DNA of 53,599 bases, from assembly GCF_017302315.1 (NCBI RefSeq), contig NZ_JAFLDT010000018.1:1-53599 (forward strand), in the 5' to 3' direction. Of this stretch, positions 45,030 to 53,599 are shown one piece after another. The position numbers and the translations under genes are program-made. Source of the stretch: Zoogloea sp. Lineage in GTDB: Bacteria; Pseudomonadota; Gammaproteobacteria; Burkholderiales; Rhodocyclaceae. The notes beneath the pieces were generated by a model. That model was not told the origin of the DNA. It saw nothing but the letters and a program-made list of their open reading frames with translations, and ran no database searches. Each line of letters starts with the position of its first letter. Position 1 is the stretch's first letter.

Positions 45030-45167
45030 GCGCCAGGAAACTCGAAGCGAGGGCTGCGGTCTCACGGCTGTTGTTGTCGGTTCTTTCGCCGTCGTCTGGC
45101 GGCGTGATTGCCGGGGCTGCTTCCGCAGATCCGGCTCCTGATGTAGGGCACAATGGGAGGAGACACC

Positions 45168-45761
45168 ATGGAGCGCTTGCACTATCAGCCGATCAAACAG
45201 TTTCGTGTCCGTAGCGGGGTCTGTGAGATTTCCGACCCATGGAGCATGGCGAAGGTCACGGCATCTTCGCCAGCCATTGAGGTCATGACTGACCTGCGCA
45301 AGATTCCCGCGGCAACAATTGCCCATGATCTTTCGCTGGCTCAGGCCAATCACAGCATGATTCTGCGTGGGGTTCGTCTGCTCTTTGTGACTGACCTCAG
45401 CCGGCGTGTCGTCGGTGTGATCACTTCCAACGATCTCTTGGGAGAAAAGCCGACGCGCGTGGCGGGTGAGCGGATGATGCGCCATGAGGAGCTTGTCGTT
45501 CGCGACATCATGGTTGCCACGGAAGAGCTCGATGCCGTTTCGCTCTCCGACGTCCTTCGCTCAGAGGTGGGTCATGTGGTTTCGACCCTAAAGGCGTGCG
45601 GTCGTCAGCATGCGCTCGTTGTGGAGGAGGGAGGGAACGGCGTTCTTTCGTTGCGAGGGATATTTTCTGCATCGCAGATTGCTCGCCAGATGGGTATTCC
45701 CCTCCAAACGACAGAAGTGGCGCGCACCTTTGCGGAAATCGAGGCAGCCATAGCAGGTTGA
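45168..45761 (+). CDS. CBS-domain protein
   Basis: A 197-residue protein built from a CBS pair (Bateman module). The first CBS is around LRKIPAATIAHDLSLAQANHSMILRGVRLLFVTD ... VVGVITSNDLLG, the second around VRDIMVATEELDAVSLSDVL ... HALVVEEGGNGVLSLRGIFSAS. Such modules bind adenosyl nucleotides and act as energy sensors. No catalytic partner is fused or adjacent. The ATG at 45168 is chosen for its AGGAG six bases upstream; 45153 is an alternative. Confidence 0.87.
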   Translation: MERLHYQPIKQFRVRSGVCEISDPWSMAKVTASSPAIEVMTDLRKIPAATIAHDLSLAQANHSMILRGVRLLFVTDLSRRVVGVITSNDLLGEKPTRVAGERMMRHEELVVRDIMVATEELDAVSLSDVLRSEVGHVVSTLKACGRQHALVVEEGGNGVLSLRGIFSASQIARQMGIPLQTTEVARTFAEIEAAIAG

Positions 45762-46400: not shown

Positions 46401-47021
46401 ATGCTTGACCAACTCATCGTGGGTTTTGACAGGGCTTTGCGAACGGTTTTTGCGAACGCCAGCACCCTGCGACCCGTTCCAGGGGCAGGCCTTCCCGAGG
46501 CCGACCTGTCTGATGACGAGCGGAGTCGCGCTGCGTCGCTCATGCGCGTCAATCACTGTGGTGAGATCTGTGCTCAGGCCCTATACCAAGGGCAGGCCCT
46601 GATGTCCAAGGATGAAGGGATCAAGCGCGCCCTGGAGTCCGCGGCCCAGGAGGAAACTGAACACTTGGCATGGACGGAGCGCCGCATTGCTGAGCTTGGG
46701 GGGCGCAAGAGCCTGCTCAACCCGCTTTGGTACGGCGGGTCGCTGGCGATCGGCATCCTCGCGGCGCGATTCGGTGATGGCGTCAATCTGGGTTTCCTCG
46801 CGGAGACGGAGCGCCAGGTGGAGAGTCACTTGAAGAGCCATCTGGATCGCTTGCCTCCGCTGGATCTCAAGTCGCGGGAAATCGTGACCCAGATGAAGAA
46901 AGATGAAGCGGAGCACGCAGACACTGCCATACGGCTGGGAGCGGTAGACCTGCCTGGTCCGGTGAAGGCTGCAATGAAGGCCAGCTCAAGAGTCATGACG
47001 GGCGTCGCCTATTGGGTTTGA
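46401..47021 (+). CDS. coq7: 3-demethoxyubiquinol 3-hydroxylase (Coq7-type)
   Basis: A 206-residue di-iron hydroxylase for a late step of ubiquinone synthesis. Metal ligands appear in the ferritin-like pattern: E55 (HCGEICAQ), E85 and H88 (EETEHLAW), then VESHL and a final EAEHAD. It replaces UbiF, as in most alpha- and betaproteobacteria. It follows the CNP1-like gene on the same strand. Confidence 0.95.
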
Positions 47022-47061: not shown

Positions 47062-47478
47062 TCAGGCCTCCACGATCTCCCAGGTGTGTTCGATCTGGGC
47101 GGTCTTGCTGAGCATGATCGTGGCGGAACAGTATTTGTCAGAGGACAGTTTGATCGCCCGCTCGACGCTGTCCGGCTTCAGATTGCGGCCACTGACAGTG
47201 TAATGGAAGGCAATTCGGGTGAAGACCTTGGGGTCGGTTTCGGCGCGCTCCGCCTTCAGGCTGACGCTGCAGTCCGTGACGTCCTGTCTGCCACGTTTGA
47301 GGATGAGGACGACGTCGAAAGCCGTGCATCCGCCTGCGCCAGCCAGCATCATTTCCATGGGGCGTGGAGCGAGATTGCGCCCACCGGCTTCAGGTGCCCC
47401 ATCCATCATCACCGCATGGCCGGAACCTGTTTCGGCCATGAAGCTCATCCCACCCACCCACTTCACTAAGCATTCCAT
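47062..47478 (-). CDS. OsmC/Ohr family protein (YhfA-like)
   Basis: A 138-residue OsmC-fold protein. The peroxidatic Cys region GAGGCTAFDVVLILKRGRQ and a C-terminal SSDKYCSATIMLSK provide the two cysteines expected of an active peroxiredoxin-like OsmC member. The first half has HAVMMDGAPEAGGRNLAPRPMEM. The length and sequence favour the YhfA subgroup over OsmC or Ohr proper. It is convergent with coq7. Confidence 0.92.
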   Translation of the reverse strand: MECLVKWVGGMSFMAETGSGHAVMMDGAPEAGGRNLAPRPMEMMLAGAGGCTAFDVVLILKRGRQDVTDCSVSLKAERAETDPKVFTRIAFHYTVSGRNLKPDSVERAIKLSSDKYCSATIMLSKTAQIEHTWEIVEA

Positions 47479-47637
47479 GCTGCGCTATCTCCCTTGATCG
47501 CGTGGGGGCAGTTCCCGCGTTCCGACCTGCCCGATGAGCACGGATTGTAGCTTTGCTTAATCGTGATGGGCGCGGCAGTTGTGCTGCGATGCAACACGAC
47601 TGCCTTTGGCTGGCACCCCGGCGGGTTCTTGACGCTG

Positions 47638-47735
47638 GTTATTTTTGGCGTATTTTTTGTTTTAAATCAATTGTTTGGATGTGTTTTTGGGTAAATTAAT
47701 TTTGTTTATATATTAATCAAAAGATTTGTGGTGCG
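47638..47735. other. AT-rich island
   Basis: About 100 bp with long T and A runs (TTTTTTGTTTTAAATC, TTTATATATTAATC), far below the surrounding G+C. No gene is visible. It lies just upstream of the sRNA promoter and may be a curved/UP-element or a silencing-protein binding zone. The rest of the 47479-47637 gap shows nothing I can name. Confidence 0.7.
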
Positions 47736-47750
47736 ACGCACAAAAATAGC

Positions 47751-47779
47751 TTGCGCCTCGCCGTTTCTGGCGCGATAAT
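47751..47779 (+). promoter_or_regulatory. Promoter of the candidate small RNA
   Basis: TTGCGC (47751-47756), a 17-bp spacer and GATAAT (47774-47779). The predicted start is about 47786. Confidence 0.6.
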
Positions 47780-47785
47780 TCACTC

Positions 47786-47888
47786 AGTCCAGTTACTTTT
47801 GTTGTTTGAAGCGACTGAAAGGTGTCTCCTCCACCCTCCTCCTTTGGTGTGGATTTAGCGCAGATCTCCCCGATCTGCGCTTTTTTTT
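47786..47888 (+). ncRNA. Candidate small RNA with anti-Shine-Dalgarno loop
   Basis: A stand-alone transcription unit of about 100 nt between OsmC and rplM, with its own promoter and a strong terminator and no plausible ORF. It can fold as a 5' stem (TCAGT/ACTGA), a middle hairpin AAAGG/CCTTT (47818-47845) whose loop shows CTCCTCC (47826-47832) and CCCTCCTCC (47834-47842), and the terminator. These motifs complement GGAGG ribosome-binding sites, as in alphaproteobacterial anti-SD sRNAs. The identity is inferred; no known RNA family was recognised. Confidence 0.6.
47858..47888 (+). terminator. Terminator of the candidate small RNA
   Basis: GCGCAGATC/GATCTGCGC perfect 9-bp stem, 5-base loop TCCCC, followed by eight T. 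It insulates the rplM promoter immediately downstream. Confidence 0.93.
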
Positions 47889-47903: not shown

Positions 47904-47933
47904 TTGACATGGGCGAAGGCATCGCGGTAGAAT
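47904..47933 (+). promoter_or_regulatory. rplM-rpsI promoter
   Basis: TTGACA (47904-47909), 18-bp spacer, TAGAAT (47928-47933). The leader is about 50 nt to the rplM start at 47991. Confidence 0.75.
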
Positions 47934-47990: not shown

Positions 47991-48419
47991 ATGAAAACGT
48001 TTTCTGCCAAGCCGCATGAGGTCAAGCGCGACTGGTTCGTTGTAGACGCGACGGACCTAGTCCTTGGTCGGCTTGCTTCCGAAGTTGCGCGACGCTTGCG
48101 CGGCAAACACAAGGCCATCTACACGCCGCACGTCGATACCGGTGATTTCATCGTCGTCGTGAACGTCGAAAAGCTGCGTGTTACCGGCAACAAAGCCCAG
48201 GACAAGAAGTATTATCGTCACTCCGGTTACCCGGGTGGTATTTACGAAACTAACTTTACCAAGCTGCAGCAGCGCTTCCCCGCTCGCGTGCTTGAGAAGG
48301 CTGTCAAGGGCATGCTGCCCAAGGGCCCGCTCGGCTACGCCATGCTCAAGAAGATGAAGTGCTACGCCGGTGCCGAGCATCCGCATGCCGCCCAGCAGCC
48401 CAAAGTTCTCGCGATCTAA
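47991..48419 (+). CDS. rplM: 50S ribosomal protein L13
   Basis: A 142-residue ribosomal protein: [53 protein letters not shown] and [13 protein letters not shown] are diagnostic of L13, a large-subunit 23S-binding protein. First gene of the rplM-rpsI operon, 12 bp before rpsI. Codon use is that of a highly expressed gene. Confidence 0.98.
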
Positions 48420-53492: not shown

Positions 53493-53599
53493 GAACTTAA
53501 GAGTTTGATCCTGGCTCAGATTGAACGCTGGCGGCATGCTTTACACATGCAAGTCGAACGGTAACAGGGAGCTTGCTCCGCTGACGAGTGGCGAACGGG
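53493..53599 (+). rRNA. rrs: 16S ribosomal RNA, 5' end (runs off the window)
   Basis: AGAGTTTGATCCTGGCTCAG starts at 53500, equivalent to E. coli position 8, placing the mature 5' end near 53493. The following GATTGAACGCTGGCGGCATGCTTTACACATGCAAGTCGAACG is betaproteobacterial. Only the first ~107 bases are present. Confidence 0.97.

What the first reader, a model, noticed from the sequence alone, without database searches (positions are those of the whole stretch)
47751..47888. Unannotated small RNA with two anti-Shine-Dalgarno motifs before rplM
A promoter (TTGCGC-17-GATAAT), about 100 nt of non-coding sequence and a perfect terminator with T8 form a complete unit. A hairpin loop exposes CTCCTCC and CCCTCCTCC, complementary to GGAGG ribosome-binding sites. 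Alphaproteobacteria have stress sRNAs with such loops; I know of no named betaproteobacterial family matching this. The sequence elements are visible; the function is inference.
Basis: partly seen in the sequence, partly recalled or inferred. Interest (0 to 1): 0.75.

Follow-up and report, generated by a model that had tools for sequence, protein, structure and literature searches.

The report
Storage-polymer-linked small RNA before rplM
The sequence before rplM is a real small RNA of an already named family that can block ribosome-binding sites; its promoter carries what looks like the docking site of PhaR, the repressor that senses the carbon-storage plastic PHB, which suggests that full carbon stores switch on a brake on carbon use.

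Summary
In detail: promoter, about 103-nt RNA, two anti-Shine-Dalgarno stretches and terminator lie at 47751-47888. The claim that no named family fits is wrong: the RNA scores 65 bits against Rfam RF02278, "Betaproteobacteria toxic sRNA" (cut-off 50). By gene order it is the positional ortholog of B. pertussis S17, a published Hfq-dependent, RBS-blocking repressor. The RNA is thus a new member of a known family. New is its wiring: the promoter carries the published PhaR operator TGCRNYGCA (PhaR is the repressor titrated by PHB granules). TGC-N3-GCA occurs in 132 of 186 distinct family upstreams (shuffles: mean 13.5, maximum 21). An exact box lies within 150 nt of 40 of 57 copies tested in phaR+ genomes and 0 of 26 in phaR- genomes. 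Seven family-like RNAs, all below the Rfam cut-off, lie within 1.3 kb of phaR, six of them behind a phasin-position gene. My searches showed no report of this link in betaproteobacteria. Proposed circuit: PHB granules titrate PhaR, the sRNA is derepressed and blocks RBSs of carbon-uptake and oxidation genes. No binding or expression was measured.

The parts
47585..47593 (.). distal PhaR-type box TGCGATGCA, 147 bp from the proximal box
   Evidence: sequence; a box at -300..-200 in 48 of 89 rplM-linked loci; could equally serve osmC
47732..47743 (.). proximal PhaR-type box TGCGACGCA (47732-47740) with CAA
   Evidence: matches published PhaR consensus
47751..47779 (+). sRNA promoter: -35 TTGCGC 47751-47756, -10 GATAAT 47774-47779
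47786..47888 (+). predicted primary sRNA of about 103 nt (start inferred from the -10)
   Evidence: start not measured
47790..47817 (+). 5' stem-loop
   Evidence: fold of one sequence
47823..47888 (+). RF02278 match; probable processed short form by analogy with S17S
   Evidence: processing by analogy
47824..47832 (+). Site 1, GUCUCCUCC, complement of GGAGGAGAC
   Evidence: site name
47834..47842 (+). Site 2, CCCUCCUCC, in stem end and loop
47857..47888 (+). intrinsic terminator with T8
   Evidence: (compensated changes)
47904..47933 (+). separate rplM promoter TTGACA-18-TAGAAT (context)
47991..48419 (+). rplM (context; synteny marker)
47062..47478 (-). osmC-like gene (context; synteny marker; name recalled)
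46401..47021 (+). coq7 (context; synteny marker; name recalled, coq7 neighbour of S17)

Best explanation
A trans-acting, probably Hfq-dependent sRNA of family RF02278, the positional ortholog of B. pertussis S17, controlled by the PHB-sensing repressor PhaR. Shown here by computation: family membership, conserved promoter, core and terminator, conserved gene order, a PhaR-type operator, its co-occurrence with the phaR gene, and linkage of related RNAs to phaR and phasin-position genes in other genomes. Inferred: without PHB granules PhaR sits on the box or boxes and represses the sRNA; when granules form they titrate PhaR, the sRNA is made and probably cut near 47823, and Sites 1 and 2 cover GGAGGAGAC-like ribosome-binding sites of carbon-uptake and acyl-CoA-oxidation genes, so that full stores brake further intake.
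For: RF02278 65 bits, cut-off 50. Gene order coq7/osmC/sRNA/rplM and S17 beside coq7. TGC-N3-GCA in 132 of 186 distinct upstreams, shuffles mean 13.5, maximum 21, nine other palindromes of that shape 1-19. It equals the core of the published PhaR consensus YTKNTGCRNYGCANMAR and fits the footprinted PhbF motif. Exact box within 150 nt: rplM-linked copies 26 of 37 phaR+ against 0 of 6 phaR-; unlinked copies 14 of 20 against 0 of 20. Own genome: phaR present; 17 TGCRNYGCACAA matches against 4 reversed, among them both sRNA promoters and two genes matching Pfam Phasin_2. 7 of 150 listed RF02278 rows lie within 1.3 kb of phaR, about 0.15 expected. Precedent: S. meliloti PhaR represses sRNA MmgR. 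Site 1 complement kept at two candidate target RBSs, 11 of 17 and 11 of 23 upstreams, against 0 of 42 for four other genes.
Against: No binding, expression or PHB data. The 186 upstreams and the genomes are related, so the tests are not independent; many phaR- genomes may form few clades. 11 of 37 linked and 6 of 20 unlinked phaR+ copies lack an exact box, and the 20 unlinked phaR+ rows were picked by hand, mostly high-scoring. With one mismatch allowed the contrast shrinks to 35 of 37 against 2 of 6 and 19 of 20 against 7 of 20. The seven RNAs beside phaR score 32-40 bits, under the cut-off of 50, and only three of the seven reappear at E 0.001 in cmscan. PhaR can also activate (phaP3). Target genes were chosen because the own copy has the site. 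Own phasin RBSs match poorly.
Confidence: 0.72

Rival explanations
1. RF02278 sRNA as published, but the TGC-N3-GCA box belongs to another regulator that recognises the same palindrome, or PhaR acts there as an activator.
For: No binding assay here; PhaR activates phaP3 in R. eutropha; the box lies upstream of the -35, a place that would also allow activation; S17 is higher in the Bvg+ mode.
Against: The box matches the PhaR consensus, is absent where phaR is absent (0 of 26 within 150 nt) and recurs at phasin promoters of the same genome.
Confidence: 0.17
2. The element is a leader or attenuator of rplM-rpsI rather than a separate sRNA.
For: It lies before rplM in 75 of 123 copies.
Against: Terminator with T8 and a separate rplM promoter follow; coq7-type loci have no rplM after it; many family copies sit elsewhere; S17 and its kin are mapped as separate transcripts in print.
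Confidence: 0.03
3. A non-specific ribosome-sequestering toxic RNA that competes for the 16S anti-SD partner sites of many mRNAs at once.
For: Members were found toxic when introduced into E. coli on a vector, as reported in PMC4603805.
Against: S17S overexpression did not impair exponential growth of E. coli and repressed a target with compensating base changes; one copy is kept at one locus with its own promoter box.
Confidence: 0.06
4. No functional transcript: a chance or decayed element.
For: No expression data for this organism.
Against: Conserved promoter, core and terminator, compensated terminator changes, gene order.
Confidence: 0.02

Closest known systems
RF02278 Betaproteobacteria toxic sRNA; ncS03/05/27/62 of B. 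cenocepacia; Hsnc059/063/086/107 of H. seropedicae
   Same: Covariance-model match over the whole model, two CU-rich stretches, two hairpins with terminator
   Different: The RNA here has an extra 5' stem-loop; PhaR control is not stated in the passages seen, and a word search of three of these papers found no PhaR in the main text
S17 of B. pertussis
   Same: Same gene neighbourhood in kin, same 5' core type; a box forms the -35 of the S17-type promoter in kin such as L094
   Different: S17L is 190 nt in print, this RNA about 103 nt; B. pertussis DNA was not fetched; the S17 paper does not mention PhaR or PHB
NmsR (RF02877) of Neisseria
   Same: Three-stem layout with two anti-SD stretches; RF02278 also picks up loci that score as NmsRb
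   Different: Window scores 42.7, cut-off 52; no box printed upstream of the three NmsR copies and phaR not found in G079 and G160
MmgR (RF00519) with PhaR/AniA of S. meliloti
   Same: PhaR represses a Hfq-dependent sRNA through a similar box
   Different: Other RNA family (window 21.6 bits, cut-off 41); MmgR lowers phasins, whereas own phasin RBSs match Site 1 poorly

Membership tests
RF02278 | covariance-model score at or above the gathering score | tested here: met
   65 bits against 50, positions 1-64 of 64
RF02278 | two CU-rich anti-SD stretches and intrinsic terminator | tested here: met
RF02278 | toxic to E. coli when cloned | not testable with these tools
   reported for members; not for S17S in exponential growth
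S17 orthologs | same gene neighbourhood | tested here: met
   through Bordetella and Achromobacter kin, not B. pertussis itself
S17 orthologs | Hfq binding and RNase E processing | not testable with these tools
   published for S17
NmsR RF02877 | score at or above the gathering score | tested here: not met
   42.7 against 52
MmgR RF00519 | score at or above the gathering score | tested here: not met
   21.6 against 41
ar14 RF02344, ncS54 RF02871, ncS16 RF02866 | score at or above the gathering score | tested here: not met
   21.7/58.8, 24.9/43, 17.6/48
PhaR regulon | operator matching the published consensus at the promoter | tested here: met
   TGCGACGCA 47732-47740
PhaR regulon | phaR gene in the genome | tested here: met
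   G000:C111:40449-40628, PF07879
PhaR regulon | PhaR binds and the level changes with phaR or PHB | not testable with these tools
   needs EMSA and mutants

The most novel reading that the evidence does not exclude
Across betaproteobacteria the RF02278 'toxic' RNAs are the RNA arm of the PHB regulon. PhaR, titrated by the storage granule, represses them from an operator at their promoter, in many rplM-linked loci perhaps by looping to a second box. In some lineages a related RNA sits behind the phasin-position gene beside phaR. The RNA then shuts translation of carbon-uptake and acyl-CoA-oxidation genes. PhaR would also be the repressor that was postulated for S17. Lineages without phaR carry another promoter motif in its place.
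Probability: 0.58. Interest if true: 0.75.

Novelty: new variant of a known kind. Interest (0 to 1): 0.6.

Why it matters
What controls the RF02278 RNAs is open in the papers read: the S17 paper postulates an unknown repressor of its promoter, and a 2021 review calls riboregulation of PHB in Cupriavidus necator undeciphered. A PhaR operator gives a testable signal (granule load), a regulator and a logic (full stores brake intake), and parallels PhaR-MmgR of alphaproteobacteria with another RNA family. The label 'new variant' is for this circuit; the RNA itself is a new member of a known family.

Tried and rejected
rplM leader: rejected (separate rplM promoter; other copies elsewhere). Membership in NmsR, ncS54, ar14, MmgR, ncS16: below cut-offs. 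Phasin mRNA as target: own RBSs read AAGGAGATCATC and AAGGAGATTGTC, a poor match. First hairpin: 98.8% of cells paired but no compensated change, so no support by covariation. GGAGGAGA-N3-9-ATG: 36 matches against 1 for the reversed pattern is not a fair enrichment, as a reversed SD is a weak control; of 30 loci read several are spurious or duplicate. Of 38 rplM upstreams fetched from genomes without a listed linked hit (18, 20), the anchor pattern found the RNA in one, L226.

The match lists were cut, so 43 of 150 genomes with a listed rplM place is a lower bound. RF02278 also rang, below its cut-off, in 1 of 14 control genomes (Caulobacter). For one search I fetched 20 phaR- copies, one per genome, out of the listed ones (left out: G165, G192 and second copies, and G079, G160 and G193 dealt with), and 20 phaR+ copies picked by hand. 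The printout was cut; its count is its first line.

Full report
What is there. The finding sits between an osmC-like gene (47062-47478, minus) and rplM (47991-48419), with coq7 before and rpsI after (names osmC and coq7 recalled). The predicted RNA 47786-47888 folds better than all 200 shuffles. rplM has its own promoter behind the terminator (TTGACA-18-TAGAAT, 47904-47933). The organism is probably a Zoogloea: L131, 100% identical in RplM, and L103, L118 and L126 at 96-97% carry that name; L082 at 96% is named only as Proteobacteria.

Family. Rfam names it RF02278, 65 bits against a cut-off of 50 over all 64 positions. The own genome has a second copy, G000:C85. Of 60 relatives 49 match at E 0.001 and 40 pass the cut-off; of 160 genomes drawn from the order 113 match at E 0.01 and 60 pass. 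So 'no named betaproteobacterial family' is wrong.

Orthology. Of 31 loci have neighbours recognised by tblastn, in the order coq7, osmC, sRNA, rplM, rpsI; L012 and L014 are cut by contig ends, coq7 was not seen in L015 and L028, and the other 8 loci showed none of the four genes. A scan of named genomes for the exact 26-nt core stopped at its limit with 120 stretches. Of their 123 copies 75 have rplM downstream, 16 have coq7 directly upstream without rplM, 11 have osmC upstream without rplM seen, 4 end before rplM, 7 are too short to tell, 10 lie elsewhere. The coq7 type includes Bordetella, Achromobacter and Alcaligenes, and B. pertussis S17 lies beside coq7. The window copy is therefore the positional ortholog of S17, by inference through these kin. 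In the order sample 43 of 150 genomes with a listed rplM place have the RNA 72-430 nt before rplM, a lower bound.

Anatomy. In 15 Zoogloea-genus loci the -35 is 83%, the spacer 47%, the -10 92%, 47823-47855 100% and the terminator 98% identical to the window. In 43 rplM-linked RNAs the terminator stem has compensated changes at 7 pairs; the first hairpin is 98.8% paired but hardly varies. The start of the core resembles the published GU/GU cleavage context of S17, so a short form from about 47823 is likely by analogy.

Published function. S17 is Hfq-dependent, is cut by RNase E, and represses BP2158 through Site 1, shown by compensating changes; 70 of the genes raised in its deletion carry matches, 32 transporter-related genes or operons among them; two other reporters fell about 2-fold and two tested candidates did not respond. 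Overexpressed NcS27 attenuates growth on several substrates, according to a review. NmsR lowers six TCA-cycle enzymes.

The new point: a PhaR operator. TGC-N3-GCA occurs in 132 of 186 distinct 130-nt upstreams; 60 rounds of dinucleotide shuffles gave a mean of 13.5 and a maximum of 21; nine other triplet palindromes of that shape occurred in 1 to 19. TGCRNYGCA is in 131 of 186: 21 of 33, 91 of 116, 19 of 36 and 0 of 1 in the four sets. Of the 55 without it, 19 have an exact box further up within 260 nt, and many of the rest have a one-mismatch form near the usual place. Of 89 rplM-linked loci with 330 nt upstream 82 have an exact box somewhere, 68 at -135..-30, 48 at -300..-200, 35 both. Their 35 spacings fall into 143-148 (13), 154-158 (14), 196-197 (6), and one each of 111 and 180. 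Two groups differ by about one helical turn, which would suit looping, but they also follow lineages. The window has boxes at 47732-47740 and 47585-47593, 147 bp apart; the distal one may serve osmC. The whole window has 11 such boxes.

Identity of the operator. I suspected PhaR from memory. R. eutropha PhaR: YTKNTGCRNYGCANMAR, with one site directly upstream of the phaP1 -35. H. seropedicae PhbF: TG[N]TGC[N]3GCAA, footprinted. Three tests agree. First, the own genome has 17 TGCRNYGCACAA matches against 4 for the reversed pattern, among them both sRNA promoters and two genes whose first 70 residues match Phasin_2, and it has phaR. Second, exact boxes within 150 nt: rplM-linked copies 26 of 37 in phaR+ and 0 of 6 in phaR- genomes (Fisher p 0.002); unlinked copies 14 of 20 and 0 of 20 (p 1.7e-6). 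With one mismatch allowed: 35 of 37 against 2 of 6, and 19 of 20 against 7 of 20. Six phaR- genomes appear in both sets with different copies, and the genomes are related, so the p-values overstate. Third, of 150 listed RF02278 rows 7 lie within 1.3 kb of phaR, about 0.15 expected by a crude estimate. These seven score only 32-40 bits, and three of them reappear at E 0.001 in cmscan. In six (families f29 and f22) the RNA starts at the stop codon or 33-66 nt behind the gene in phasin position (for L255 the phasin match ends about 60 nt before it), with phaR divergent and one or two boxes between. Of these six genes two pass Pfam's phasin cut-off, one is just below, one 118-aa piece has no Pfam match but resembles its neighbours by tblastn, and two were compared by tblastn only. 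A phaB-like reductase follows in two. In the seventh, L256, the RNA has two boxes of its own.

Link to S17. Of 23 coq7/osmC-type loci printed, 22 show an exact box within about 230 nt; L044 does not. In L094 the box supplies the -35 of TTGCAT-17-TACTAT, the hexamers and spacing published for the S17 promoter. B. pertussis DNA was not fetched.

Without phaR. TATTAGA(N1-2)AT precedes 17 of 20 unlinked phaR- copies and 1 of 20 phaR+ copies; among linked copies 4 of 6 and 0 of 37. It may be a replaced control element or just a lineage-specific -10 region. NmsR copies (L257, two; L258, one) carry no exact box in the 170 nt printed, and phaR was not found in their genomes. G193, a phaR+ genome, also has a box-free copy, L259.

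Targets. GGAGGAGA at RBS distance from ATG: 36 matches in the own genome, some spurious. Two were followed: an acyl-CoA dehydrogenase (11 of 17 distinct upstreams keep GGAGGAGA) and a DUF485 gene (11 of 23, its paralogs lack it); rplM, rpsI, coq7 and osmC have it in 0 of 42. Both were picked because the own copy has the site. That the DUF485 gene belongs to an acetate-permease operon is recalled.

Mechanism. PHB granules titrate PhaR, the sRNA is derepressed, Sites 1 and 2 cover RBSs of uptake and oxidation genes. Repression is inferred from phaP1 and from S. meliloti, where PhaR represses the sRNA MmgR through a similar box. Activation is not excluded (phaP3).

Novelty. The RNA is a new member of a known family; the PhaR circuit in betaproteobacteria is what I could not find in print. 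Searches that joined PhaR or phasin with sRNA terms: 102 papers, 20 listed; 51, 20 listed; 7 listed; 5 listed; others were. A word search found no PhaR in the main text of the S17, Herbaspirillum and two B. cenocepacia papers. PMC5688073 mentions a common upstream motif of three family RNAs in a supplementary figure that I could not see; it may be this box. Only openly licensed PMC papers were searchable, and the original NcS27 paper was not read. What I saw of papers: PMC11722255 outline with abstract, sections 4 and 13; PMC5688073 section 6 and passages; passages only of PMC7011215, PMC4603805, PMC10987360, PMC5362039, PMC3206438, PMC12849132, PMC12542648, PMC8401924, PMC9049629; the rest as search listings.

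Noticed in passing
L351-L370 promoter regions (phaR- genomes): TATTAGA(N1-2)AT, often as ATTAG-N5-9-CTAA, precedes 17 of 20 family copies where phaR was not found, against 1 of 20 phaR+ copies; perhaps another regulator's site.
   Followed up: partly
L257 (G079), L258 (G160): RF02278 also detects loci that score 77-107 bits as NmsRb, so the two Rfam families overlap and may be one superfamily.
   Followed up: partly
G003:C54 and G015:C147: A family copy lies about 1.3 kb from the isovaleryl-CoA-dehydrogenase-like candidate target gene.
   Followed up: no
L152 (IMG/VR contig end): One viral-collection contig holds the exact 19-nt core and hairpin near its end, with a degraded terminator tail.
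   Followed up: no
window 45156-45170: GGAGGAGACACCATG, a full 9-nt Site 1 complement, precedes a CBS-domain-like ORF in the same window (CBS match 23.7 bits, just under its cut-off).
   Followed up: no
L139: A record titled Chloroflexi MAG carries the betaproteobacterial coq7-osmC-sRNA-rplM locus, probably a binning error.
   Followed up: no
window 53493-53599: The window ends in the first 106 positions of a 16S rRNA gene.
   Followed up: no
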